DNA of 64,000 nucleotides, from the NCBI GenBank assembly GCA_011037195.1, contig JAAEAF010004993.1:1-64000 (forward strand), read 5' to 3'. Positions 24,231 to 48,200 of this stretch are shown here, one piece after another. The notes under the pieces were generated by a model that saw only the letters and a list, made by a program, of their open reading frames with translations, had not been told where the DNA came from and searched no databases. A program made the translations under genes and the position numbers. The first letter of the stretch is position 1; each line of letters opens with the position of its first letter. Origin of the DNA: Triatoma infestans (taxonomy: Eukaryota; Arthropoda; Insecta; Hemiptera; Reduviidae).

Positions 24231-27200
24231 CTTAACATCATTGATAAAATATTAGAGATGTGAAGATAATATAATAAAACATCTGGTGTGAAACACTCGC
24301 ACGACTTTCTCTTACACCATTTAATAAATTAATTATAATATGACAAATTTTCATTAAACTTAAAATTTTCTCTTTTATCCTACCATAAATATACAGTTGG
24401 GGGGGGGGAGTGCTAAAATACTTCATACTTACGTAACACTTCCTCCCACAACATCCTTATAATCAAGTAATTATAATACCAACAAAGCCAGATAGAGAAT
24501 GATTGCATTGTAAAGAGACTAATATTCAACAAACACATTGAATTTTAACGTCATATTCCTTAGAACCACCCAAAACCAATTTTTTCAGAAAAATGTTTCA
24601 AATGAATGTGATACGTTTCTATCTATGCCGCAGGCATTCCAAGTTTAAAGAAACTAATTTTGTATCAGATTTCGAAAAAAGTCCAAAAAAATTCAAAAAC
24701 CTATTCTGTAAAATCGTACTTCCGGTAAACCGATTTTCTTCAAATTTGGAAATAATATTATGAAGGTTGTAAACTATTTTGTAATGTGGTACTTCTGGTT
24801 GATGGATTATGGCCGAAATCTTCGTGTCTGATGCGGTAACAGGACCTAAACGGAATACCAAGTTTGAGCTTCCTCTAACTTTTTGTTTTTGAAATACGGT
24901 GTATACACACAAATGCAAAGACTATTCGCTTAAAACAACACTTATTTGGACTCAAGGGACCTCAAAACGTGTCCTTCCGGGGTAAACTGAATTTTGAAAA
25001 TCGGGCACAATCGCAATACTTAGTGGAACGCAATAATGGTGGATTGGATGATCCCTCGAAGCACCATCAGTAATGTATCTATCATGTACCTATCCACTAA
25101 CCTTTCTATAGTCATCAGAGACATTTTCCGTGGTAGCTTGCTTCATATTGTGGTCATCGACCGGTTTCGGGCGTTCGCCCATCTAAGAGGATGCGTTTGT
25201 CAGACAGTGTGATAACACAGACTTGCACAGAGCAAATTCAGTTTATACACTGATTCTTTCCACTAATGCTTTAATGATGCTTTCCAACTCTGCGGAACCA
25301 ACCACCACAACAACTTTCTGTAGTCATTAATAGGAATGACCGAAAGATTTATAGGTCCAAATACCATAGAGTCCTAGTGGTAACTTATTCTTGGTTTATG
25401 AGTAAAGACTACCCTAACTTCCATCCTCAATTTGGATTTAAAGAAACATTAAGTAACCTTTTAAAATCCTTTATTACCATCTTCATCAGTACATCCCTAC
25501 CATTTTATAACAGATGGAAAACTCCGTCTGGTCCGGGTTACCTAAATGAACGTTAAAACTACTCTATCTTATAGCCATAATAGCTCTACTCTAACTAACT
25601 CAGCCATAATAGCTACAACTAGATCATCATGGGCCTCAGTTAGTGCGTTTTTTCTTTTTACTGACAGATTTCAGTTAATACTCTTCCCCAGTTATAAAAA
25701 AAAACTGGTGTGACACACTCACACGACATTCTCTTATTCCAATTGACTGAAATGGTAAATTTTCATTACATTTATAATTCTCAGAGACATTTTCTGTAGT
25801 AGCCTGCTTCATTTTGTGGTCATCGACCGGTTTCGGGCGTTCGCCCATCTTCAGGATGTGTTTTTCAGACACTCTGTGTGTAAAACTAAATTTGCTCTGT
25901 GCAAGTCTGTGGTGTCACACTGTCTGAAAAACGCATCCTGAAGATGGGCGAACGCCCGACACCGGTCGATGACGACAAAATGAAGCAGGCTACCACGGAA
26001 AATATCTCTGATGCTTTCCAGCTCTGCGGAACCAACCACCACAACAATTTATAATTCTCATTAGTGTTTACAACCGTGTGGGTGTTTTTATAGAGAAAAA
26101 TCACAGAAAACTGAAAAATCTGTTCAGTAAATTCCATTTCCGGTGAATAAATTTGCGTTAAATTCGAAATTCTGACATAATATTTCATTGGCATCAGCGC
26201 CCGCTCTAGCGGTTACGCCGCCCCGGACAAAAAGACAAATTGCCGTCCCTTAAGAATATATATATATTTTTTTAAGCAAGTCTATGCATGTATAAAGACA
26301 CGCTGAAGAAGCGCTCTGCTCGCGTGCTAATGCTATTATTCTGTTAAGAGAAGTATATGCATGTTCAAACAAGTTCAAGCATCGTCCTTTACAAATTCTG
26401 CGTAAATTTTTCAATAATAGTGTAAATATTTTTTGCTTTTAGACGTAAACAATATAAATATGTCGCCCGTAAATTTTGGAGCCCCGGACAAATGTCTGGG
26501 TTGCCCGCCCCTAAAGCGGGCGCTGTTGTCATTAATATTAAGTAGATAGAATGATATAATAAACTGAAATAGCAGTTTCGAAGAAAACATAGCCCCATCC
26601 CTCCCCCTAAAAGACCCCTCAAATGAATATTCTGGAGAATGTTACAAATAAACGTCCGTAGCTCTTTATATGTTTAGTTAAGATACTAAGTTTAAAAAAA
26701 ATTGTTGGAACCATTTTCGAGAAAATCACAAAAAAATGAAAAATATATTCAGTAAAGTGGCACTTTTACTTTGACAGATAACTTACTGTCGGATCCCATC
26801 GTGATGGGAATATCAAATGTAAACTTTCTGCGATTTTTCATTTTTGAGCTATGCGATTCACACACACACACACATATCACACCATTTTCTAGAAATCATT
26901 TTTTTTTACTCAGGGGTCCTCAAAACGTATATTTCCTGTGAAAATTCGATATGGAAAATTTGACAAGATTACAATATTTGCTCTTACTAGAAGTAAGAGA
27001 AAGTGTAAAGGATATGGCGGACAAAATTTCAGAGACTGAAAGCTAACTTGTGAGGAATTAAGAAAGAATAGTTAGTTCTGAAGCAACTAAACTGTTATGA
27101 ACGTCTAGTTTAAAATCTGAAGCTGTTTTTTTTTTATTTATGTGTTTAGTATTACTTACTGCCCTCCAAAGTCGACATAGAAAAAACGCTGAAGAAGTTC

Positions 27201-30200: not shown

Positions 30201-33200
30201 AATCAATTGGATATACTGCTGCCGCTCCAGTACCTAAAATATTAACGTTAATCATTACAAAACTGTTTGGGTAAAATATAAAAATTTATATAAATAAAAA
30301 AAAAAATTACCTCCGGCAATTGAACCCAATGTAAATCTGTAAAGGCTCTCTAAAACTTTAGTTTGAAAACTTCGCTCGTCTAGGTGCTGCAACAGTGTTA
30401 TCAATTGACTTCATTAATACAATAAAACAAGTTTATTAACACGCATTGTTCATGAACCAAATAATCTATCTGAATAATTTATTTCTATATTTTTTATTTT
30501 TTTCAGAGAAAGATCCAACCATTTTTCTAATTTTTAAATCACTATTATTTATATTATATATGAAACATATCTGTAGTGACTAATTGTGAAACTGTAATTT
30601 CTCTTAATAAAAGCCATTATCAGGATCGAGTATTAAAAGTTGCTATTTAAGAGAAAGCCTCTCTCTCATTTCGACGAGTATTTCAGATGATGAAAGAAAC
30701 AGTAGCTAAAATGACACTTTAGTAAAACCATTGCGGCTCCATTAGCCTGGAATGGATACACCAGTATAAGTTGGTTTTTATTTTTTTTTCTTTAATGCTG
30801 GTAAATACTATTTCATATTTAAAGGTTAATTTTCAATTGAAAGCTTTGTTAACATGAATTTTTTTTTAGACAGTGGACGTGATGACCATAAATAAGCTGT
30901 CTCATTATAATATACAATAAGCTATTATACTTAAGTCAGCCATTCACTCAGTACTCGACCGGAAATCAACTCATTTTATTAATCCTCGCCAATATAATTA
31001 GTTAGTTTTAACGTTCTGGTTTTTGAATTAGTTCTTTATTTCATATTGTTCCTGTAGGTGAATGTATTGGGATTGGTGTTAAATATTCGAAATTACATTT
31101 TCAATGGAAATACTTCTGAGCATAGATTTTTTTTTTTTTTTTGCATTTGCTACGAGGCCATAGCCATAATATCTTATATTTGATGTTGCAAATTTTGTCT
31201 TAATTAACCTACATACATCATTCATGCAAATAAATACTTCCATTCAAATAAATACTAGCATTTATAATAAGTTAGCTATTTACTAAATATTTACATCTAG
31301 CTATTGTATACACAAAGACACACACACACACACACACGCACGCCTCACACTCACCATACTAATCCTTCAAACGAAATTGGGGTGGAGTACTCAATATTCC
31401 TCGCACCCCTTTAAACTTAAACCTATAACAAAACTACAAGCAGATGTCCGAACCCATTATGCTGGATATTTTCCATATAAAATACTAACCATTATCGTAT
31501 TTATAAATCGATAGGAAATGTATTAATTCCTGGAGTACATACACATTTTCAGAGAATATAATATTTTCATAGTTGAAGGGACACATTAAATATGTATATA
31601 TATTATTAAAGAAAGTATTTCTTTCTGGAGAATATTTACTGCAGATCATCACAATGTGTCTGAAGTCTTCAATTTCCTGACACAGTTCACAAAGAGGTGA
31701 GGAACATAACCCTATTCTATGCATATAAGACCTACAGACTGCATGATTGGCTCTAAGCCTGCTTACAATAGTCACTACTTTTTTACTTATATTTAAACCC
31801 CTAAACCAGGTTTTCTTTTTCAAAGTAGGATAATATTTCTTATATATGCTACCTTTATCACTATTTATATATTTCCTTTGCCAATCAATCAAAATTTTTC
31901 TCTCCGTTACTATTTCCAAGTCGTTATATGGCAAAGGGATATAATCCACATATTCCCCCTTCACAGTGGCCACTTTTGCCATTAAATCCACTGTATCATT
32001 ATCCCTTAATCCACTATGTCCCTTCAACCAACCAAAATTTACTTTCACATCTTTCTCAATTAATAAATGTATTGTCAATAAAACCTCATTTAATATAAAA
32101 TTATTTTCAAAAGGTACTTTAGTATTCTTTAATTTAATAAGAGAACTTTGGCTGTCGCTTATAATCGCATAACAGCCTTCCCTGTGGAGGCTAAGAATAT
32201 ACTTAAGAGCTAACAATGTGGCACTTAATTCTGCTGTATAGACCGAAGCAAATTCATGTAGCCTAGCCAATTCGAAAAATTTCTTCTGAGGATCATAAAA
32301 AGCACAACCTACTTTACCATTTAATTTAGATCCGTCAGTATATATTATGTAAGCCTCAGGCCATAAATTTTCTATAGAATCACGCATAGCTAAATCCTTA
32401 ATTCTAGGTGGGTAATTTGTAAAGTCCCCAATGAGCTTTACATTTATGTCCAAACAGGTTAGATTATAACTCACAGAATTACTCTTTTCTGTATTAACTA
32501 AATGTTTAATTTTAGATATTTCCAAAAAACTCTCACAGAAAAGAGGGGTAGTCTTATTTTTCCAATAACTATATGTTAAAACTTTAGTATTGAGTTGGCA
32601 TATTTTATTATATATTCTATCATCATACATTGACTTTTTCAAAACATACCTATGGGATAACATCTGCGCCCGGAACTCTAACGGAAGTTCACAAGCTTCC
32701 GCAAAAACTACATCTAATGGAGAACTACGAAGAAAACCCAAACATAATCTTAGGCATTTGTTTTGAATTAGCTTTATTGGTTGTAGAATTGTTTTTTTAG
32801 CCGTACCATAAAACATAGCTCCAAAATCGAAAATTGACCGAATGGTTGATTTATAAAATGTTAAAGAGATCCCAGGATCTGCTCCCCAATTATGATGGGA
32901 AACTGCTCTCAACATATTATAGTAACCTTCAGATTTCTTTGCTACCATTTTTATATGCTCTTTCCAATTAAGCGTTTTATCAAGAACGATTCCTAGAAAT
33001 TTAACGTGATTTTTCCATGGGTAATTACGTCCGGCTAATGTAATTGCGTCAGTTACCGGCAGCCTTCTTTCCTAGTGAATGGGCATACAACTGATTTCTT
33101 CTCTGATATTACTAACCCATTTTCTAAAACCCATGACTCTAGCTTCATTAATGCGGAATCCAAAGCATGTCTACATTCCTGAAAAGAAGTTTTAGTAACA

Positions 33201-36200
33201 TATATACAGACATCATCTGCATACTGCAGTATTTTGATATCCGAAGAGAACAAAATTTCTAAATCCGCAGTATATAAAGAATAAAGAGTAGGTGAAAGGA
33301 TTCCCCCTTGCGGAAGTCCAACGTTTACAACCCTAGGGTCCACAAAAGATTCATTAATTCTAACATATATAATTCTATTATTGATTAACCTAATTACATT
33401 GTCGATAAACTTTTCAGGTAGTCCTATATGTCTTAATTTAGTTGCCAAAATAGGCATTTGAACCGAGTCGAAGGCTGTAGAAAAGTCCGAAAACAAAGCC
33501 AGAAGTACCTTGTTGGTGAAGAAGGCCTGCAAGATGTCAGTTATTAACTGAATCTGACAGTCATAAACCGATTTATGTTTCCTAAAGCCGTATTGTGTAC
33601 TAGGGAATTTATGATTAGTTTCCAACCACCGAACTAGTCGGTTTTTAATTAACCTTTCAAGAGTTTTTAATAAACATGAGGCTAATGAAATTGGCCTATA
33701 TGAGAGGAAATTTTCTTTCGGCTTGTTTGGTTTTAACACTGGGCATATCACGTAATCCTTCCATTGTGAAGGAAACTCACCCTTCATCCACATCTCATTA
33801 TACATATTAAGTAATTTTAGTTTAAACTGCGGGGGTAAATTAGAAATGAGGCTGTACTGTATCTGATCGATACCTGAAGCGCTGTTTGAACATGACTTTA
33901 TAACCGAGATAAACTCTTTAAGTTGAAATGGTTCAAGCAAAAAATGATTTTCTCCAATAATTTCTAAGTTAAATTCTATTTTATTTTCAACGTAACATGG
34001 GGCCAGATTATAAAGAAATTCAGAAACCCATTCTCCATTTTCTATTGTGTTACACATTTCATGGTTTCCTAGAGACTTAATTTTATTCCAAATAGTTTTT
34101 ACGGGAACATTTTTATTTAAACTTGTACAAAATAATTGCCACGATTCCTTTTTACTTTTTTTAATGATCTTTTTAGTTAAGGCAACTTGTCTTTTATATG
34201 CCATAAAATTAGAATTATTTGGAAGTTGCATGTATTTTTTAGTAAGTGCTTCCTTTCTGCTTTTAACGCTAATGGCACATTCTTTTGTCCACCAACATTT
34301 AAAAAATTTTGCTTTTACTTCCATTTTTATAGGAATAGAATGTTGTGAGGCATTATTTATTTCTTTAATAAATTCTTCATAATTCAAAATGTTTATTTGT
34401 TTTTCGTTGAAACTATGTTTGTAAATATCCCAATCTGCCCTTTTTGTATCCCATTTACAGTAAGGTTGAATTTTCTTTTTTACTATTAAATTAATATTAG
34501 ACTCTATAATAATGGGTTAGTGATCCGAGCCCATATCATCTTCGAGGATTTTCCAATTAAATTTAGTAGCCAGACTGGGAGAACAGAAAGTAAGGTCAAC
34601 CGCAGACTTATTAATTTGCCTAATGTTACCTATAATGGTGGGGGAACCATCATTCAAGTAAACCAAGTTGTTATCTTGCACAGCTTCTAACAGCAGAAGA
34701 CCCTTGGAATTAGTATAGGAGGATCCAAAGGTCTGGTTGTGTACATTGAGAAGTCGCCTGCCATTATCAGTTGACCACTACCAATACTTTCTATTAACCT
34801 ATCCCATTCTGTATAACTAACATTATTTATAGCAGAGTTATATAACGAAATAATTGAACATTTACCATTGTTAAATAAATCGATCTCTATACCAACTAAC
34901 ATTAATCCTTTAACTTTGTATAAATTTTTAATTTCTTTGAATGGAATTTCCTTTTTTATTAAAATAGCTGTGCCAGATTTACCATCTTTACGATCCATTC
35001 TTATCACATTGTACCCTCCAAATTTTACATTTATATTTGGCTTGAACCATGTTTCACTCAATAAAGCGATATCTATTTTTTCATTCAGTAAAGCTACCTC
35101 TATGTTGTGTTTATTGGCTACTGCCGATCGAGCGTTCCATTTCCATTAATTTAAACCAATTGAAAATGTGGAAGTTTACTTTAAAATTAAATAAATAGAT
35201 ATCGATAGTATATAAATAAAATGATGATATTAAGACAGTTTGCAAATCAACAACATAAAATACACTGTACAAAGATATAAATACTTATATTTACATTTAT
35301 ATACAATCTCTCAGATACACACTCACAAACATTCTCTCTCACTCTCTCTCTCTCTCTCTCTCTCTCTGACACACACACACAACATATATACATATACCCA
35401 TACACACAACACACACGCACGCACATACATGCATAAACAACATATACACATACGTACATACATATATACATATACACAGAGCACACATGCCCAGAGCACA
35501 GAGTACATGATTCATAAAATCTGAACAGTACATTATAGTGAATTATAAATATTAAATTAATTTTATATATTGCAGATTTATACAATTATTTTGAGGACCT
35601 ACTTACACCTATCGCCTCATCTAGAGTGGTTACTTTATCTTTTATCATTTTCCTTAAACCTTCATCAGTCATCTCTTTCAATTCATTTAATTTAACACTC
35701 TTAATTACAGAGTAAACCGCTTCGTAAACAATATCTAAATTATCATTATCATGTAAAGATTCTTTCAATTTCATGATCTCATTTGGACGATATGGATTTT
35801 GAGGTATAAAACCCCCGGGTACATTTTCCTTTACCACTTCACCGATTAATAATTCTTTTATCTCATTTTTATTATAACTTGGCGATGATGATCTAGGCCT
35901 TTTTGTAGGCCTTCTGTAAGAAATAGTTGAGGCATATAGCCTATTATTACTGCCCTTATTTCCATTGAGATAAGGAAATTCTTTTATATTATCAATATTA
36001 ATTCCCTCTTTAGCAGCAAGAGCTGCAAAAGAATTTCCGTTATCAAAGTACAATTTGGCCTCTATATATGAAATATTACTTTCGGCCATTAACTTTTTTA
36101 TTTGTTTTTCTTTTGTAAAGCAGGGACATAATTTCTGATCCAAGACTAAGTGATTAGAGGCACTACAGTTTATACATTTAGTCTCAATACTATCGCATTC

Positions 36201-39200
36201 TTTACTGTTGTGCTTATTACCGCATTTAAAACACCTCCCAGAAGACATAGGATGGACCCTTGATATGCCCTTTTTCTCTTTATCCATACTTTCAATTCAA
36301 AATAAAAAGGACCCAAATCACTCTTTCTATATTCCATACAATTATTCTGTTTGGTATTACCGTTATTTGTCTTATTTTCTGTCATTAAACAATCAATTTC
36401 ATTTTTCTTACCTTTTATTTGTGCATTACCAACCTCCACATTCATTTCCTCAAAATCAGGTGGATACCCAATTGTCCTCTGCTATTATCACTCTTTTTTT
36501 TTTAAACTACTAAATATCTTTACACTATTTAAACTATTTACAAGGTTATTACAATATATACACGAAAAAGCAAATAAAAAGGCAACAAAATTAAATAAAG
36601 AAAATTAAAAAAAAAATAAGAATTAATAATTTAGGAAAACTTGGAAAAAGAACTAAAAACAAAAGAAACTATAAGTGAAATTATATGAGAAATATAGTAG
36701 ATTTTGCCTGTACGCCTAACGAGTGTATAGATCGAACTTTGATCCGCTCATTTCGAAAGATCAACACAGTCTGAGCATGGAAAAAAAATGTTGAAAATTG
36801 GATTTTGAGATACGGTCATACAAAAGAACTCTTTTTAAATTTCTACCGACGTTTCGGTAAATTTATTGCCTTCTTCAGGGCCTGTACAAAGGTTTAAATA
36901 CAAATCAATAAAAAACAGAAGCAACAGAAAATATGAACTTAAACTAAATATTTTCAAAATAATTTTTTTTTAAAATAAACTATATAAATAAACTAAATAA
37001 AGAGTATGATATATATAGAGTACTATTAAATTTATTTCAAATTATTGTTGTAGAACAGTATTAAATTAAATCACAACTATTAAATAATCAAATCACAACT
37101 ATTAAATAATCAAATCACAACTATTAAATAATCAAATCACAACTATTAAAAAAATATATGTGTGGCATATATGAGTAAAGTATGAAAAGAACTTAGGAAA
37201 TGTACTTACAAAAATTTTTTTAGTTAGAATTCCAGTAGTAATTAATATAGTTTAACCTGGGACATATCATCACCAAGTGTTACGGACATTGGATGGGTTA
37301 TAAAGGGCTAGGAGAGCGGATGTAATGTCCGGCCTTGTACTGATTTCAAGGTTTATAAAGGGCTAGGAGAGCGGATGGGAAAACCGTGTCTTAGTCTGTA
37401 TGTTGTTTTGGAAATTCCAGGAGATTGTTATAACTGAGGGATAGGTTTTTGGTGTCTGTTCTAAAATTGATAGATAATTTATCTTTTTTAATATGAATCA
37501 TTTCCAATATATTTCTTTTTTTATTATTATTGTTGATTGGAGAGACTCTCCAGGCACAACAAGGTACAGCTGCTATGGGTGCCTGGACATGCAGGGATTG
37601 AGGGGAATGAGACAGCTGAACAACTGGCCAGGAACGGGGCAAACACTCCGTTCATTGGTCCAGAGCCCGTCCTGGGGATAACTGGCGGAGCGATTCGTGC
37701 AGCGATGAGAGAGTGGTGTCGCAGTAAGCTTGAAGAGCTCTGGAGGGGGAGCCCAGTACTATACACAGTAAAAGGATGATGCCAGGACTGTGTAAACGAA
37801 GGACCCAAATGACTCTTAGTAAGTAGGAGCCAGATTTCTCTGGTGACGGGACTATTAACGGGTCATGGTAGGTTCAGGAAACATCTGTACAAGGTAGGGC
37901 TCATTCGAGCGGAACCCTTGTGCAGATTATGTCAGGAAGAGGAGGAAACGGCCCTCCCACCTGTTGTTCGATTGCGTTGCAATAATTAGATTGAGGTATG
38001 AAACCTTTGGTACTTTGCGACCTGAGGAGATAGTAGCTCAAAATGACCTGGTGGTGAAGGCCCTCAAACTCCTTAAGGAGGGAGGGTTTGTCTACTAGGA
38101 ACTATCAGAGATGGCACAAAAAGGCTCTGTTGGCTGCGGTGCCGGGATATAGCCCACCCGAGGTTGGTAATAATAATAATAATAATAATATTATTGTTGA
38201 TGGAGAGATTTTGGTGTTTTCTATGTCAAATTCATGTTTGTGTTGTATGCAGTGTTTCATTAGTGCTGTAGTCGTGTCAGTCGGTTTTTTTAGTTTTACA
38301 GTCGTATTTATGTTGGTACAGTCTATTTTTTAAATATTGAGATGTTTGACCTATGTACGTAGCTGGGCATTGTAAACAATTTATTTTATAAATTATATCT
38401 GATAATAAAGTTGTGGGTGTGGGGTCTTTTAGTTTAAAAAACCGTACTTTTTTTTTAAACAAAAATTTAATAAAATACCGCTTCTGTACAAATGCCATGA
38501 TACTGAAAAGCTGAAATAATATTTTGAAAAGCATCTATACCCTGCCGAATAAATTAAATTTTATTAAGGTACCATATAAGTTATTATATTTCAAAAAATT
38601 ATTATTTTTTTGTAAATAATAAAAGTAAACAATCAAATATTGTGTGTGTGTGTGTGTGTGAGTGTGTGTGTTTTTGTCTGAGCAATATATCAAACCAAAT
38701 AATCGCAGGAAGTTTGAGCCGAAAAGCAGGACTATATTGAAAGATTTTTTTAGTTCGCAATTTTGTAGAAATCGGTTCCTGAAGATGGCAAACAATGTTT
38801 GCCAAAACAATGTTTTAAAAATTATTTGGTGTTTTTTTCCTGCAAACTTCCTGGTCGATAAGTCAACAATAAGATGCACTAATGGCCAACAATTGCAATA
38901 ATTCAACACTTATTTAGCTCCATCCGGATCATGTGACTAAAAGATACCTTTCTACAGGGCCGCGGACAGAAGTACTTTATTTCCGTTATTCCCTCCGGTC
39001 TCTTTAGTATTTAATTATTTAGTTAATTTAATTATTTAGATTAATTTATTTCTTTATTATATAAAAAGAAGAACAAACAGATTTCAATTAAGATGTTGCT
39101 GAATGTAGTTTAGTAGTTAAGTTCATTTTGAAAGATGCACACGGTGAAAGTATGAAGGTATGCAGCACTGCAACAACTAAACAAATTTTTTGGGGTTTCT

Positions 39201-42200
39201 GTTAAGATAAAATGGCGATTCTTTTTATGATATAAAATTATTCTTTTAGATTATTTTTAAATATCTCACCCATTAAGAATTTTTCTTCCTGTGCAATTTT
39301 TGGTTAAAGGCTTTCTGAACGGATATTCTTTATAAAGATGTGAAGTTGTGAGTTATGAATACTTTGCTTAATCCTAAATCCTAAAATAACGGTAATTAAT
39401 GGTTAAACGGTTAACATCAAATACTTACAGCAAGCTCATATATTTCAGGCAGTCTATAATTTAATTGTTCACTATACTGTTCTGGAGTTATTGATTCTAA
39501 ATCTGCATAAACAATACTCCTGCAAAATAATGTAACACTAATTTTTAATTATTACTAATTCAAAATTGTTTTTTTTCTTTCGTTTAATAATAAAAGTTAA
39601 ATAAATCGAGAGAAAGAAAAAGCAATATAATATAATTGCAGTCCCCAAAAAATAAAATGAATTATTTTTATGATCATAAACGGAACTGTTTAATTAAAAA
39701 AAAAATATATAATCATAATTAATAGAATAAAAGAAACGTATTTTTACTAGTAACTGACAAAGCTACTCTAGATGCATTGAATGATCCACATATTAGTGTG
39801 GGAAGCACACAGAAACAATTTCACAATTTATGAAACTAAAAAGACAGAGAAAAATCTGGTGTGAAACACTCACACAACTCTCACTTATTCCAGTTTTCAA
39901 AATTGTAAATGACAAATTTTATAGATAGTATACCATATTTAATGAAATGTTTCGAAAACTGAAAAACTGTTCAATAAAAGCGCACTTCCGGTTTACTAAT
40001 TTTCTTGAAACTTGTAACTTTTACCATCTATGTTTTTCTAATTCATTTTGTTTGGATGGAAGAATAGTATAATCAACTATGATATCACTTTAGACATTAC
40101 CCCACCCCTTCCCTAAATGTGCCCTTAAATGAATTTAATAAGGTAGTTTATCACTTGTTATCACTCCACGGTATTCCATACCAGTCCACGGTTGACAAGT
40201 GTTCTTTCGCTTTGTTCTACACTCAAGAAATAATTTTAAAAAAATAAAAAAAGGTAAGATTCGGTAATTATTAAAGTAAATCTCCTTCAAAAACGTAATT
40301 TAAGTTACACATCCCCACTTGTTGGATGTTTCCATTTTTAGAAGGAACAATGTGCACCATTTTTTTTAAAAAAGCAAAAAACAACATAAGTTTTTTCCAC
40401 CCAGTTATCAGTGAACCCCCTCTTAACCTAGTTAAATCCTAACGAAAACACTTTTTAAAACCAGTGTATCAACTAAATTTGCTCTGTGCAAGTCGTATGT
40501 TATCAAAAACATTCGATGATGGGCAAACGCCCGAACTCGCTCGATGATCACAAAAAAAAAAGTAAACTAACACGGAAAATATCTCTGATGCTTTCCAACT
40601 CTGCGGAACCAACCGCAACAATTTTTAATAAAGTTAAGCCCAAAAATTAGCAATCAGTTCAATGTAGAAAACTAAGTCCAAAATGTTCATCAGATTTTGA
40701 AAAACAGTTAATTTATAATAAACTACAAAGATAGCTACTGGATGTTAAATTCTGGATTACTAATTTAAGGCACTATCAAGGTAAATTTTGCATGATAAAG
40801 AAATTAATCATAAAATCATAATTACCCTTTTTTCTGAAACAAAAAATATATACATATATATATAGATATTACAAAAAAGGGGTCACAAATGTTGGTTCAT
40901 AAAGTTATCACTTAAAACAAAGTGGACCATCCTAGTTGCAACAGTTTCGAAGTTGTAATGCTCATTTATTGAGCATTTTTAGCAAACCTTTATTTTTCTC
41001 AGAAAAAGAAGCTTGTTTGAGCTTCCTTATATTACTTGAAAAGAATATGAGATAATTTTTGGAAAGAGCCAAATTATTGTCTATAAATAATGTAAACAAT
41101 ATTTACATTTGGCCGTAGTTAATTAAACAAGCTAAAACATTAATTGGCTGGGGCCAAAGAAGAAACTTTTTATTTTTTAAAAAGTTTATTCGACGATTCG
41201 GACACCTTCCTCAGGAACTACAAAACAAAAAATATGGATATAAAGAAAACTGTATGATAAAGTTAAAACATATAATAATTAAATAATATTAGAAAGATAT
41301 GATACCTGTTAAGGAAGAATGGTGGCATTGAGATTAAATGCTGGAGGGGGTTGTAGAGTAAGGATGCTAGCAAAGAAAACAGAGAGGGGACATTTTTCTA
41401 ATTTTTTCTGATTGCATTCTTCTTTATCTGTTGTCGGGATGAAACATGGGGAATTGGTGGGAGTTTGTTGAAGAGACTGTCGATATATTTCGCAAATAGC
41501 TGAACCAAACGGCATTTTAAAAGAAAAATACGTGAACTCACTCGTGATGCTAGTTTCTTCAGTGTGGAAGTAATGGCATATGTAGTTTTTTTGAAATTAT
41601 ATTTATCGTTGAAGTACTTGAATACCAGAGATTTCTATATGTATGTGGATGAGTGTATTGTGTGAGATTCTTCGCCAAAGAGTCCATATCAGTGTAAACA
41701 ATATTTATGTTTGGCCGTATAAATATAAAAAGTTAATATAAAGAATATAAAGTTTCTTCTTTCGCCCCAGCCAACTAATATTTTAGCTTGTTTTATTGTC
41801 TATTATATGTGGCTCTTTTTAAACATAAAATCTGGAAATAATTATTAATTATACCGTCTGAAACAAGGGAAATCTAAAGTTGGAATTTTAGAAAATGTTC
41901 CCTTTTTTGGTTATAAAGATAAAAAAGGATTCAAATATTACCCTCCAGTTTGATGTATTAATTGGCAAAGACGAAACAATATGTCAACTTGTAAGGGTGT
42001 GATTTGTGACATCATTTGTGCTGAATACAGGAACTTATCTGAAATAAGTTGTTTAAAAAAAGAAAGAAATTATAACATTCTTTTAATAAGTTCTCATAAA
42101 ACACAAATAAATAAATAAATAAAACATTCATAGGAATTTCTCTCAATGCAATTCTTACAGTACCAATGCACCTACTTTATACTATAACATATACTAAATT

Positions 42201-45200
42201 GATAGTTTTTTCATAAGCCATATTATAGTTTATCAACAAGCCAAACATCGCAGCGTCCCAGAAAAAAATCTTTCAAATAAAAGTGTCAAGCTTATCTTAT
42301 ATTATGAATACTTGCATATTTTATTTTTTTAAAAATCAGAGTCTCTATCAAATGATTTCAAATTCAGCATTTCAATATGTATTTTATGGTTCTTATGATG
42401 AGATAAATGTTTAAACAAAAAATTATGTTAAAAAGTGCAATTTAGAAGGAAGATTAATGTAAAAGGTTCGTTCATTGCAAATTTTTACAATAATAATCCG
42501 GCTAACACTGTATCATTATTTCGGAAAGCTTAAGGAAAAAACAAACGATCGAAATAGAATATTCTTTCAATGATGTTATCTTTAGCAATTCGTATCACTG
42601 AATTTAGAATGAAAATGCTACACAATTCCTAAGAAGCCTGTTATATTGGAAAATTTACTGCGAATATCTATTTCTATGAACAACATAAAAATATGAACTT
42701 ACTCTTTGTTAATTTCTGGGTTCTACTACCATTTGAAGCATGAAGATAGATCGTTTTTATTAATTCCATATTATTCAATAAAGAATTGAATGCCATAAAA
42801 TATGGAAAACTGACTTTATGTCCAGCCTGTCCCGTACTGGCCGCCTAAAAGAGCCACAACAATATCCTAAATTAATCGCTCAGGATTAAATACTTTTTTT
42901 TTCTTTTCTTGTTAATAAAAAAAACAAGAAGAAGAAGAAAATTTTGTATAAAACATTACACAAAATATGATAAAATAAGTATCAAAATAAAAAAGTGCAC
43001 TACAATTAATTTAGGCGTAACCAAAATATACAAACAGCAACTAAATTATCTTGGACTTGCTTAGTAAGTAGATGACTGTTTATATTCGTCATTATATGTT
43101 GGAAATCTAATGCTGAAATAAATCCAGAACCATCTTTATCAAATTTTTGGAAAGCTTGTTTTCCACATTCTACATGGAAATCCTAAAATATAAAATACAA
43201 TAACAGGTTGTACTATTAATAATGATCTTATACTGTTAAAATCATAAAAAATACAATAACAGTTTATAAGTTAAAAATTACTTGTCCAAACTCAAAAACT
43301 ATTACTGATGCAGAGTATTTTTAAAAAAATAAATATTTTGACCCAAGTATGTAACTAAGATATCCAAAATTGGTATAGGGGATTATTGCACTGCGACCTG
43401 AAAGATCGAAACTAATATATTACCCTTGCTTGCTGAAGGGGAAAAACATACACATGTAATTAATACAACAACTTTACTTCAACTTGCTGTCCTTTACTTT
43501 ACATAACAGAGATAGTGTAAAATATATGAAATAGAAGTTCATATGGAAGCCTTACGCCACAACTGACCCAAAACCCCCCAAAATCAGTTTACTGATAGCC
43601 AAATCATTTAAATCCACCAAATAAAAAGTATTTATTATTATTCCCAAAAGGGGAGGGGAGTAAACCCTACGCTATCCAAAGCCCCCTCGGGCCCATATAG
43701 CTGCCCCTAAAGAATACCTACCACTGGGACTAGAATGAAAATCCAGGCCCAGGTTTTAACCATCTAAGTTTCACAACAGACCGAACAAATCGGACCAAAA
43801 CCTTAAAAGGACACAGCTTAAGATCCTCTACCGACATCCTATTCCGGCCGAAGGTCCTAAACCTAATCTCCTCACAACCCAAACAATTCGTCATCAAATG
43901 CATGGGTGTTTCCTCCTCAGTTTCACAAACTCTACAAAAAGGGTCAGGCACAAGTCCCATTATATAGAGATGTCTCCTTAAACCACAATGCCCAGTGAGG
44001 AATCCAACCAGATACCTGAGGGAGGTCCGTGAAAGACATCGGACCCCACTACTCAAAGCTCCGTCCGGGCCCCCAATGAGCATTTTAGACTGCCGACAAC
44101 CCACTGCACTCATCCATAAGGATGATGCTGTGGGGTCATCCACGTCTGAAAGCACGACAAACATGTGCCAGAAGACACACCAACAGCAGGCTCTGGACCA
44201 ATGAAAGGGAGAGAGGCACCTAATTTGGCAAACCTGGACCTGGACCCCAGACCAGAAGCACATCCTTTAATGAAGAAAGATCTTCCAGTCTTCTAGAACA
44301 TTCCAACACCAATCTGGAAGTGAAGACACATGAATTAAGCGCCTTCAACGCAGCCTGGCTATCCGAGCAGATACAAACACCTTTTAAATTAGTGTTACGC
44401 ACCCTCTCATCCAAAATACAGCAAAGAATTGCATAAACCTCAGCCTGGAAAACGGTGGCCCACTCACCAAGAGGCGCTACCAAATGATCTCCCGTCTCAA
44501 AATAGACGGCAGCCCCAGACCTACCATCCATCCTGGAACCGTCCGTGTAGCATCGGAGATAATTCTCAGGAATCACACCAGACGGACCCAGGGTTAACCA
44601 ATCTTCCCTAGAAGGCAACCTAACCCTGTAGGAATGACCAAAGACAAAAGTCTTCAAATTCCTATCAGAAGGGAAACCTGTAATGGGAATCCTTAAAAGC
44701 ATCTCACGATAAATGGTAGAATGACCATATCGCTTACCCTGCCAAAAACCTGCCTGTTTAATTCTATAACAGGCTTTCATTGCCTGGTTTTTCACCTCCA
44801 CAAAAAGAGGTGGAATCCCTAACAAAGTCTCCATAGATGCGGTCGGTGTCGTCCGAAACGCTCCAGTCACCGCCAGACAAGCCAAGCGTTGGACTTCTTC
44901 CAACAGCTGCCTAGCAGATCGTGTTTCAATGCGACGCCACCACACCAAAGCCGCATATACCAATCTAGGTTTAATGACCATACAATAAATCCAGAACATC
45001 ATCTTGGGAGTGATTCCCCAGTTCTTACCTACAACTCTTCGACATTGCCAAAAGGAGATTATCGCCTTTTGATGTTGTGTCTTAACATGTTCCGACCAGT
45101 TCAATTTACTGTCGAGAACTACTCCAAGGAACTTCACTGATTTGCTAACCTGTATGGAAGTACCTAACAACCTAGGAGGTGTAAAACCTACTATCTTCCT

Positions 45201-48200
45201 TCTATGAGTAAATAGAATTGCCTGGGTCTTAATAGGATTAATAGAAAGACCCTTATCCTGTGTCCAACAATATACCATGTTAAGGGCGCTTTGCATTAGG
45301 TCCGAAATAGTGGACAAACAGCGCCCTAACAATAAAATAACACCATCATCGGCATATGCTTGCACATAAAATCCCGATGAATTCATCCTAACCAAAAGGT
45401 CATCCATGACGATGCACCACAACTTAGGTGAGAGACAACCCCCTTGAGGGCAACCTCTCCCCACTTGTACTATCATGGTGCGCCCGCCAAGGGAAACCTG
45501 TATAACCCTACTCCTAAGATAGACACCTATCCAATTGATTAAGACGGGATGTATACCTTTTCGTACCAAGGCATCTTCCAGAGCATCAAACGATACTCTG
45601 TCAAATGCCCCCTCAACATCAAAGAAACACCCTAGGGCATATTCTTTTATTTCCAAAGCAGATTCTATCCTTCCGACGAGACAATGTAATGCAGTCTCTG
45701 TCGACTTACCCACAATATAAGCATGTTGGTTAGGATGGAGTGGATGATCCCTTAATGGGCCATCAGTAATATACCTATCCACCAACCTTTCCAAAGTTTT
45801 CAAGAGGAAAGACATAAGACTAATGGGTCTAAATGCCTTGGGGTCGGAGTAGTCATTTCTTCCCGGCTTGGGAATAAAGACTACCCTTACTTCTCTCCAT
45901 AATGTTGGTACATAACCAAACATCAAACATCCTTTAAACAATCTTAACAATACCTTCGTCAGCACGTCCCCACCCTTTTGCAACAGACAAGGATAAATCC
46001 CGTCCGGTCCAGGTGACTTGAAAGGTGAGAAACTTTGTACTGCCCAACTAACTCTATCATGTGTGACAACCTCATCTAAGGTGGATACATCTTCAAGGTC
46101 CCATCTCCTACCACCCACCAAAGACGAAGCAGCATTTAAACCAATATTATCCGGGAAGTGAGTATCAAGCAAAAGCTGCAGTGTCTCCCCTTCCCCCCCT
46201 GTAAAGGAACCATCAGGGTATCGTAGGGTACCTAACTGACTGTCCCTATCCTTACTAAGAATCCGTACCAATCTAGATGATTCCTGGAACGAATTTATAT
46301 CCTCACAAAAGGATCTCCAGGAATTCCTCTTGGCTCTCCTCAGAGCATATTTATATGCTCTTTTAATACTGTTATAACTATCCCATGATTCCGAAGAATC
46401 AGCAAGGACAGCCTTCCTGTATGAGCCCCTTACCTGTCTCCTTAGTTTTTCCAACGAAGAAGACCACCAGGGATTCTTACTATCCTTAACCACCTGGGGA
46501 GGACAAGACTCCTCGAATGAGGATCTAATGTGTTCATGAAGAATACCAGCCTCCCTTTCCAATTCCTCTATGCCATCAGGGGCTTCTGATTGGATAGTCA
46601 GTTTATCTTCAATAATTCTAGAATATAAACCCCAATCCGCCCTCCTAGGATTCCTATAACTAGCCAGGGTAATTGGATCAATCCCCAGACTAAACCTAAT
46701 CATCCTGTGATCGGAGATGGAAGCCTCAGGACTCACCCTCCAATCCTTAATCAGACCACTAAAATTCCTAGAAGCAAGGGAAATATCAATAACCTGTCTT
46801 CTAATCCTAGTAACAAAAGTGGGTTCAGTACCCCTATTCAGGACCTCTAATCGCGTGCCCACCAGGAAATCCATGAGAGCGCGACCCCTACCATTGGTGT
46901 CGCTGCTGCCCCAGACAACATGATGTGCATTCGCGTCACATCCTATTATAATAGGTATGTCATTGGTCTCCGAATACCGAACCAAACCCATGAACTCCTG
47001 AGGAGGAGGAGAGGGGCCATCATAGGGGAAGTAAGCCGAAGCCACAACTACGTCGCGACGACGCCCACCAACCCCCAGTCCAACCCTCACCGCCACCAAG
47101 TCCCGAGAGCAGAACTGTCGAAGCAGGACAGCGTCGACACTCCGACTGGCAAGAATACATGCCCTAGGAATGTCCCCGCCATCCGCCACGAACAGTCTGC
47201 CATCAACCACACTCAATCCTCGAACCAAACCTTTAAAGGCATAAGGTTCTTGAATTAGAATAAAATATGTATGCAACTTAGCAATACAACGGCATAAGTT
47301 AGCCGTTGCATCTTTGCTATGCTGCAAGTTAACCTGAACCATTTCTACCCTGTCAATCATAGTAATAAGTCAACTAATGTAAGAAATGGAACTTCTGACA
47401 AACTTGATAGCAGGCAGGAACAAAAATAAATGAATAATAATAAAATAAATAAATAAACAAATAATAATAAAATAAATAAATTTAAATAAATAAATAGACC
47501 AATAGATAAATATAAATAAATAAATAAACAAACAAAGAAATATAAATAATAAACAAACAAATAAATATAAATAAATAAATAAAAATGAAAATACCTGCCT
47601 TACATATCTTTCCTTTTTCCTTTGACCACGTTTCAGAAATCGCCGCAGGAGGACAAGTCCTCCGCGGCTCCTCCTGACACGTTCTCCTCCAGAGCAAGCC
47701 TTCCCTGCCTCTGGATATTTTTCCAGATTCCCACCCATTAGTGCATCCAGGCCCTGGTCACCCGACTCTGGATGTACAGAGGAATTACCCCCACCACCGG
47801 TGGCCCCCTCCTCTAAGGGGCCCCCGGCTGACGAATTTAAAATTAAAAACATATAATATAAAATTAAAAATTCATCTCCAGAGCTCTCCACCCTCCACGG
47901 AGCCTCACAATTTGGGACGCTTTGAAGAAGCGCCAGAGCTACCCTAGAGATATAGCGCCCAGGGATTGTGAACCATGGCCCACAATACCCGGGAGCTCAC
48001 CCATGCGTTCTTTACGCTAGCCGATTGACCAGAACTGGGTTAGGCTCTGGCCGCCTGTTTAGTGGAGTCAGGAACCAAAGTGGTGTGTTGGACTGCAAGG
48101 CACGCCGAGGAAACTTGCCTCCAGCGAGAACCTGCATCCTCAACCACCAGGACTTCCCTCCCCCACGACACAGGTATCCACACACGGCAAACATGTGGGT

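What the first reader, a model, noticed from the sequence alone, without database searches (positions are those of the whole stretch)
25771..26060. Small element with two inverted hammerhead-like ribozymes and a 13-bp target duplication
The sequence shows TTTATAATTCTCA on both sides of a 264-bp noncoding unit. Inside are two arms of about 100 bases facing opposite ways, each with CATC-CTGAAGA-T-GGGCG/CGCCC-G(A/C)(A)A-CCGGTC-GATG. Hammerheads with a tiny stem III are known from Penelope-like retroelements and plant retrozymes. A free-standing, protein-less animal unit with an inverted ribozyme pair and its own target duplication is not something I recognise. It may be a non-autonomous, ribozyme-processed retroelement.
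Basis: partly seen in the sequence, partly recalled or inferred. Interest (0 to 1): 0.88.

Follow-up and report, generated by a model that had tools for sequence, protein, structure and literature searches.

The report
Penelope-type fold-back ribozyme insertions
The small element is one of thousands of short insertions left by what looks like a Penelope-like jumping gene, each often made of two copies of the gene's ribozyme-bearing start joined head to head, and together they suggest how this odd class of jumping gene inserts itself.

Summary
A unit of about 264 bp lies between 14-bp duplications (25770-25783, 26047-26060), with two head-to-head arms. The minus arm has an intact minimal type I hammerhead core; the plus arm has a broken invariant base (A14C). 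The window holds two more copies (25102-25327; 40462-40621). The 941-Mb genome has 12,125 exact copies of the tail and 10,828 exact 34-nt ribozyme cores. It is not a new kind of element: it fits the published pseudo-LTR of Penelope-like elements (ATG at the foot of stem II, cut 24 nt into a reading frame, AC-rich reverse-transcription end, a 35-bp tail on one of two inverted copies, target duplications). The useful result is mechanistic. Of 50 tail-defined copies at least 35 are fold-backs; the tail-less arm ends within M134-143 in 33 of 35; junctions are diverse; in 13 of 35 neither arm can be a copy of the other. The best reading is independent priming on both target strands from two fixed start sites, then joining of the cDNAs. 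Ribozyme cleavage does not set the ends: 42 of 50 copies keep sequence upstream of the cut. The protein-coding partner was not found.

The parts
25770..25783 (.). left target-site duplication of copy c2 (ATTTATAATTCTCA)
25781..25871 (-). antisense arm of c2 (monomer positions M137 to M47), outer end at start site 1, no tail
25821..25858 (-). minimal type I hammerhead core with stem I, all invariant bases present; predicted cut between 25825 and 25824
   Evidence: hammerhead consensus CUGANGA/GAAA/UH is recalled
25876..26047 (+). sense arm of c2 (M3 to M173), outer end at start site 2
25934..25971 (+). second hammerhead motif, A14 changed to C at 25960, expected inactive
25944..26047 (+). reading frame from ATG at the foot of stem [36 protein letters not shown]
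26013..26047 (+). 35-nt tail between start sites 1 and 2, AC-rich 3' end AACCAACCACCACAACAA
26047..26060 (.). right target-site duplication of c2
25102..25115 (.). left duplication of copy c1, CTTTCTATAGTCAT
25113..25252 (-). antisense arm of c1 (M139 to M1); hammerhead core broken (CTCTTAGA for CTGAAGA)
25275..25313 (+). short sense arm of c1 (M135 to M173, essentially the tail)
25314..25327 (.). right duplication of c1, CTTTCTGTAGTCAT (one mismatch)
40462..40621 (+). copy c3, sense only (M1 to M170), hammerhead degenerate; weak upstream homology at 40272-40355 suggests it reaches further 5'

Best explanation
The element is a short insertion made from the 5' end of a Penelope-like (PLE) RNA: the end of the pseudo-LTR with its minimal hammerhead, the ATG at the foot of stem II, and the first 34 codons. 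Proposed steps. (1) A PLE reverse transcriptase/GIY-YIG nuclease opens AT-rich DNA with a stagger of about 10-15 bp (inferred from the duplications). (2) Each broken strand primes reverse transcription on a PLE RNA inside the frame. One strand starts at site 1 (monomer position about 138), the other at site 2 (about 173, AC-rich). The 35 nt between them is the tail (the fixed ends are shown; the priming is inferred). (3) Each cDNA runs towards the RNA 5' end, usually through the uncleaved ribozyme. (4) The two cDNAs are joined head to head, sometimes through short homology (CAGTGTG/CACACTG), sometimes with filler; fill-in leaves an inverted repeat with one tail and a target duplication. The ribozymes are passengers inherited from the PLE leader. 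Their self-cleavage, likely only as dimers or with protein, is not needed for most of these insertions.
For: Family size: 12,125 exact tails and 10,828 exact cores in G000; reversed-pattern controls 0. Duplications: score >=12 in 18 of 30 copies against 0 of 870 mismatched flank pairs; in the tail-defined sample 25 of 35 fold-backs score >=9 against 14 of 1190 mismatched pairs searched in the same way. The duplications are 77% A+T, their flanks 67.5%. Paralogous empty sites hold the target once: best case L078, whose joined flanks match the window's own LINE at 45111-44924, 88% over 188 nt. Fixed, unequal outer ends: at least 35 of 50 tail-defined copies are fold-backs; tail-less arm ends at M134-143 in 33 of 35. 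Over all held loci, 78 of 84 head-to-head pairs have one arm at site 1 and the other at site 2, 1 has both at site 2, 5 are other. Independent formation: 31 different junction pairs in 40 copies. Neither arm a copy of the other: the antisense arm reaches further 5' in 13 of 35, the sense arm in 10, level in 12, while the tail is on the sense arm. [quoted passage not shown] Match to anatomy: Adineta vaga Penelope has an inverted pLTR, a 31-bp tail on one of them and 8-10 bp duplications (PMC3846280, passages).
Against: No PLE protein was linked to this leader. The 150 perfect matches to the 35-aa start that were shown (of 62,106 first-look candidates) lie in open frames of 38-178 aa. The one long GIY-YIG frame looked at (C1030, 809 aa open; 451 bases read) has a different start and no such ribozyme in that stretch. 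The Anolis study reports no apparent difference in start site between strands, whereas here the two arms differ. Tail-less fold-backs would be missed by a tail query; the check that does not use the tail is small (5 checkable core pairs, by eye: 4 with exactly one exact tail, 1 with none). Ten of 35 fold-backs have no duplication scoring 9. Arms of one copy are more alike than arms of different copies (0.068 against 0.105, 0 of 2000 permutations as low), which also fits one shared template. L002 and L003 share a junction and a variant with different flanks, so some fold-backs may have been copied as units. Junction coordinates depend on alignment and on a monomer consensus whose 5' end is not sharp.
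Confidence: 0.72

Rival explanations
1. Self-priming: one cDNA (or an antisense RNA) folds back on itself and is copied, giving the inverted repeat; proposed for Adineta Penelope in PMC3846280.
For: Head-to-head arms with short palindromes at some centres; CAGTGTG/CACACTG could prime a fold-back (junctions at M42-49 with M1 in several copies); arms of one copy are more alike than arms of different copies.
Against: A copied arm should end where its template ends, so both arms would share one outer end. Instead 78 of 84 pairs use two different fixed ends. In 13 of 35 copies the antisense arm holds leader sequence that the sense arm lacks, and the tail is on the sense arm.
Confidence: 0.13
2. A non-autonomous, SINE-like family: the fold-back or the 173-nt leader is itself the transcribed, mobile unit (a PLE-derived retrozyme relative) and is copied by another PLE's enzyme. 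This is about the donor and can be true together with two-strand priming.
For: Huge copy number with no frame longer than 178 aa behind the leader in the 150 perfect copies shown; arms about 6-7% from consensus; L002/L003 look like one fold-back copied twice.
Against: Diverse junctions (31 in 40) mean that most fold-backs were made anew. Some copies carry about 370-430 nt of shared sequence further upstream (L067, L073; shorter in L058), so templates can be longer than the unit.
Confidence: 0.3
3. Metazoan retrozyme: ribozyme-processed circular RNA that is reverse transcribed into tandem copies.
For: Type I hammerhead core, small size, duplications longer than 4 bp, as described in PMC7229834 (sections 13 and 17 read).
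Against: 84 head-to-head pairs against 2 direct pairs in the held loci; ends are not at the cut site (3 of 191 arms start at M94-95); 42 of 50 templates were uncleaved at the ribozyme; the motif is the minimal PLE form.
Confidence: 0.05
4. Cut-and-paste inverted-repeat element (MITE) or chance hairpin.
For: Long inverted repeat with target duplication.
Against: Duplication length varies and ends are unequal (one 35-nt tail); junction and arm length vary from copy to copy; chance excluded by thousands of copies.
Confidence: 0.01

Closest known systems
Penelope/Poseidon-clade PLE, pseudo-LTR with minimal hammerhead (Anolis PAc, PMC11167929; Adineta Pen families, PMC3846280)
   Same: Hammerhead at the leader/ORF junction with the ATG at stem II; cut about 25 nt into the frame; internal AC-rich end about 104-118 nt in; 30-40 bp tail on one of two inverted copies; duplications of about 8-15 bp; AT-rich targets. 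(The hammerhead is described for Anolis; the word does not occur in the Adineta paper.)
   Different: No coding body found; the inverted leader pair alone is the insertion, in very high number; the two arms use two different start sites in 78 of 84 pairs, whereas the Anolis assay saw no apparent strand difference.
Metazoan non-LTR retrozymes (PMC7229834)
   Same: Type I hammerhead core, small non-coding unit, duplications over 4 bp.
   Different: Those are direct tandem repeats of 150-450 bp with canonical hammerheads and circular RNAs; here head-to-head pairs with a minimal hammerhead and mostly uncleaved templates.
Dimeric minimal hammerheads (HHR_Amex1 in PMC7229834, passage)
   Same: Single base pair of stem III with a palindromic tetraloop (here A-U and CCGG); a double-hammerhead fold scores -27.3 kcal/mol against -3.5 for one monomer hammerhead.
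   Different: One unpaired U between A9 and stem II, which is the U of the start codon; the best dimer fold (-31.2) is not the double hammerhead.
LINE-1 twin-primed inversions (recalled)
   Same: Inverted 5' segment joined to a sense 3' segment between duplications.
   Different: In twin priming the two segments are adjacent parts of one RNA; here both arms largely cover the same stretch.

Membership tests
Penelope-like element (PLE) insertion | Minimal type I hammerhead in a pseudo-LTR at the ORF start, ATG at the foot of stem II | tested here: met
   ATG at M70 next to stem II, predicted cut 24 nt downstream, frame open through the tail in c2; 26 in Anolis
Penelope-like element (PLE) insertion | 30-40 bp tail on one of two inverted pseudo-LTRs | tested here: met
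   35 nt; one arm with tail and one without in 78 of 84 head-to-head pairs
Penelope-like element (PLE) insertion | Target duplication of variable length at AT-rich sites | tested here: met
   25 of 35 fold-backs score >=9 against 14 of 1190 controls; those 25 are 10-15 bp, one 21; 77% A+T against 67.5% in flanks
Penelope-like element (PLE) insertion | Linked ORF with telomerase-like RT and GIY-YIG nuclease | tested here: inconclusive
   38 GIY-YIG matches in the genome, none shown linked; the 150 perfect leader matches shown lie in frames of at most 178 aa; the DNA query of the upstream region did not complete
Hammerhead ribozyme, type I | Invariant core CUGANGA / GAA / UH and three helices | tested here: met
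   Minus arm of c2; 26 antisense and 30 sense arms of 40 copies; among 100 listed cores position 7 is A, T or C. Helix III is one pair only
Hammerhead ribozyme, type I | Match to an Rfam hammerhead covariance model | tested here: not met
   None at gathering over the window nor at E<=10 over 25600-26200; so it is filed here as a minimal PLE-type variant only
Hammerhead ribozyme, type I | Self-cleavage | not testable with these tools
   Needs RNA; the monomer hammerhead fold is 8.4 kcal/mol above the best fold
Metazoan retrozyme | Direct tandem repeats joined through the ribozyme | tested here: not met
   2 direct against 84 head-to-head pairs
Metazoan retrozyme | Circular RNA | not testable with these tools
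   no RNA data
MITE | Equal terminal inverted repeats and fixed duplication length | tested here: not met
   unequal ends, duplications of varying length

The most novel reading that the evidence does not exclude
The PLE integration complex is built as an asymmetric pair: one reverse transcriptase starts at site 1 on one target strand while its partner starts at site 2, 35 nt downstream, on the other strand, on one or two leader RNAs, and the cDNAs are joined by annealing or end joining. The head-to-head insertion with one tail is then the normal product of PLE integration, not an accident, and this genome holds a family of more than ten thousand copies that records the reaction at base resolution.
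Probability: 0.42. Interest if true: 0.75.

Novelty: new variant of a known kind. Interest (0 to 1): 0.6.

Why it matters
How Penelope-like elements integrate, and why they carry inverted pseudo-LTRs with an optional tail, is an open question (PMC11167929: little is known of the transposition mechanism; PMC3846280: further experiments are needed to choose between models). A family with over 12,000 exact tails gives a natural data set that separates self-priming from two-strand priming. It predicts two start sites, one per strand, and says that ribozyme cleavage is not required for most of these insertions. It also warns that paired inverted hammerheads in animal genomes need not be independent ribozyme elements.

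Tried and rejected
Rfam at gathering and E<=10: no hammerhead; the sub-threshold miRNA matches reflect the long hairpin. Plain folding of single arms: hammerhead is not the best fold. Viral-contig scans for tail and core: 0 hits. The idea that all copies start at one RNA 5' end (M1, an initiator-like TCAGT, recalled motif) was drawn from the 40 copies most like c2, where 25 of 40 sense arms start at M1-5. In the tail-defined sample some copies run further upstream (L067, L073, L058; c3 by weak homology; L074 and L089 by 23-34 nt), so the start is only a suggestion and c3's 12-bp duplication may be chance. Ribozyme-cleaved RNA as the usual template: only 3 of 191 arms begin at M94-95, inside a diffuse cluster at about M81-102. 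A first arm-end count (33 fold-backs) was cut short by a small search window and was redone; its duplication control (22 of 2450) used those edges and was replaced by a matched one (14 of 1190). Arm distances in the 40 top copies (within 0.048, between 0.051) are biased by selection for likeness to c2; the tail-defined sample gave within 0.068, between 0.105; both are reported. Odd rows kept in counts: L085/L086 are near-identical neighbours, L082 aligned only at M2-48, L075's antisense arm is doubtful, L081 and L083 give more than one of the 84 pairs; L050 counted as sense-only although it has a short antisense piece by eye. Dropped before counts: L001 (same place as the window); L075. Among 106 tails no common continuation of the frame was found; the downstream flanks that do match each other do so at shifted offsets, read as shared host repeats. 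Cervera 2014 and Lunse 2017 on PLE hammerheads are not held; I saw only their titles in a reference list.

Full report
Observation. The duplication is 14 bp. Between the duplications lie a left arm read on the minus strand and a right arm read on the plus strand; the unit folds into a long hairpin. The minus arm carries C3-U4-G5-A6-N7-G8-A9, G12-A13-A14, A15.1, U16.1 and C17 in place (numbering recalled), with a 4-bp stem I, a 4-bp stem II, and a stem III reduced to one A-U pair around a palindromic CCGG. The plus arm has C at position 14. One extra U sits between A9 and stem II. No Rfam hammerhead model is hit.

More copies in the window. A blastn of the element against the masked window gave two more copies. 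c1 lies at 25102-25327 with its own 14-bp duplication (one mismatch). It has a long antisense arm and only about 39 nt of sense, the tail. c3 (40462-40621) is sense only and degenerate. The three end in the same tail, GCTTTCCA(A/G)CTCTGCGGAACCAACC..., followed by an AC-rich end.

What the extra U means. The U belongs to an ATG. From it runs an open frame, [21 protein letters not shown] in the antisense arm of c2 and [34 protein letters not shown] in its sense arm; c3 is frame-shifted. [quoted passage not shown] Reverse transcription begins at two adjacent internal sites, most often in an AC-rich stem-loop 111-118 bp into the ORF; the stretch between the two sites is the 30-40 bp 'tail'. The protein cuts and extends both strands, and ribozyme mutants still insert (PMC11167929, parts 1 and 2 of 4 read). 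Here the cut is 24 nt in, the outer ends are about 70 and 104 nt in, and the tail is 35 nt. The Adineta vaga paper describes an inverted pLTR next to the direct ones, a 31-bp tail on one inverted pLTR, and 8-10 bp duplications, and proposes self-priming (PMC3846280, passages).

Genome scale. G000 has 941 Mb in 13,959 contigs. The element as DNA query gave 4,445 first-look candidates; the 40 scored places match on both strands, and two arms map in each. The tail pattern matches exactly 12,125 times and the 34-nt core 10,828 times, with 0 for the reversed controls. I analysed two sets: the 40 best DNA matches (L001-L040, biased towards c2) and 50 tail-defined copies (L041-L090).

Target duplications. 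In 30 copies, 18 have a duplication score of 12 or more (length minus 3 per mismatch) against 0 of 870 mismatched flank pairs; at 9 or more it is 24 of 30 against 10 of 870. In the tail-defined set, 25 of 35 fold-backs and 6 of 15 sense-only copies reach 9. Mismatched pairs of the 35 fold-backs, searched in the same way, reach 9 in 14 of 1,190. Ten fold-backs do not reach 9. The 25 duplications are 10-15 bp, one 21, and 77% A+T against 67.5% in the flanks. Joined flanks of 34 copies with duplications (31 of the sample, 3 of the window; window results not printed) were searched against the held loci: 7 copies gave matches across the junction (L042, L064, L066, L076, L078, L088, L090), several of them weak. 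Four were inspected. The clearest is L078, inserted into a LINE whose uninterrupted relative is in the window at 45111-44924 (88% over 188 nt).

Architecture. Mapped on a 173-nt monomer (M1 to M173; ATG at 70, cut after 93, site 1 about 138, site 2 = 173), 35 of 50 copies are head-to-head. The antisense arm ends at M134-143 in 33 of 35, at 137-139 in 28. Counting all held loci, 84 head-to-head, 3 tail-to-tail and 2 direct pairs were found. 78 of the 84 have one arm ending at site 1 and one at site 2, 1 has both at site 2, 5 are other (most loci were chosen through the tail or through c2, and L081 and L083 give more than one pair). A check that does not use the tail: among the 100 core places listed, 7 close opposite-strand pairs are all head-to-head (by eye). 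Of the 5 that fall inside the range of the tail list, 4 have exactly one exact tail and 1 has none. So tail-less pairs cannot be excluded but do not seem to dominate.

Junctions. In the 40 c2-like copies there are 31 different pairs of inner ends, some with short homology between CAGTGTG (M1-7) and the complement of CACACTG (M42-48), some with filler up to 17 nt. L002 and L003 share a junction and a variant but have different flanks, so one fold-back may have been copied as a unit. In the tail-defined set the antisense arm reaches further towards the RNA 5' end in 13 of 35, the sense arm in 10, and they are level in 12. Since the tail is on the sense arm, in the 13 copies neither arm can be a copy of the other. 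This is the main argument for two separate reverse transcriptions and against self-priming. Later deletions could mimic some cases.

Template. 42 of 50 sense arms start upstream of the predicted cut, so the RNA was uncleaved there. 39 of 191 arms start at or beyond M55, with a diffuse cluster at about M81-102; 3 start at M94-95. L078 is a curiosity: its two arms start at M94 and M95 with about 242 nt of other sequence between. Stem II and cleavage could both cause stops there; I cannot tell them apart. Arms of one copy differ by 0.068 on average (31 copies), arms of different copies by 0.105 (0 of 2,000 permutations as low). That fits one source at a time, one RNA or several alike. In the biased set the two values are nearly equal, 0.048 and 0.051.

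Ribozyme state. 26 antisense and 30 sense arms of 40 keep the core, both in 22, neither in 6. As monomer the hammerhead fold scores -3.5 kcal/mol against -11.9 for the best fold; a double hammerhead through ACCGGU scores -27.3, still above the best dimer fold at -31.2. So activity, if any, is expected in dimers or with protein, in line with the Anolis result.

What is missing. No coding donor was found. The 150 perfect matches to the leader peptide that were shown sit in frames of 38-178 aa. GIY-YIG matches exist (38), the longest frame being 809 aa at C1030, but its start is unlike the leader. A decayed GIY-YIG piece is in the window itself (Pfam E 0.0004, 21 bits, just under the cut-off of 22.6). 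The family may therefore be moved in trans by another PLE.

Literature. I found no description of the one-start-per-strand asymmetry or of a high-copy head-to-head leader family in nine searches of the held library and in what I read. The two main papers on PLE hammerheads are not held, so this is no proof of novelty. Of the papers named, I saw parts 1-2 of 4 of PMC11167929; passages of PMC3846280, PMC7761336 and PMC12910113; outline, passages and sections 13 and 17 of PMC7229834.

Noticed in passing
window 38280-38534 (-): 85-aa open frame with a GIY-YIG motif ([17 protein letters not shown]...RLYQH); Pfam GIY-YIG E 0.0004, 21 bits, just below the cut-off: probably a decayed PLE nuclease piece.
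   Followed up: partly
window 31485-35145 (-) and 44220-47996 (-): Two LINE-type elements, one with RT and RNase H in separate frames, one with a 1049-aa frame of endonuclease plus RT.
   Followed up: partly
G000:C1030:8279 onward (L091): Long PLE-type frame (809 aa open around a GIY-YIG match) with start MEETQQQNENN and an AC-rich run ACACAACAACAA near its ATG; no match to this leader in the 451 bases read; its first 107 aa hit no Pfam family.
   Followed up: partly
L067 and L073, up to about 430 nt upstream of the monomer: Shared upstream region (71% identical) with internal repeats in L067 and no evident reading frame; possibly the 3' untranslated part of the donor.
   Followed up: partly
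L078: Fold-back whose two arms begin at M94 and M95, at the predicted ribozyme cut, with about 242 nt of other sequence between them.
   Followed up: partly
L017, monomer arm M54-173 on the left: The only pair of 84 with a tail-length end on both arms.
   Followed up: no
window 25823-25968 and similar hairpins genome-wide: Such long inverted repeats, if transcribed, could feed small-RNA pathways; four miRNA hairpin models match c2 below their thresholds.
   Followed up: no
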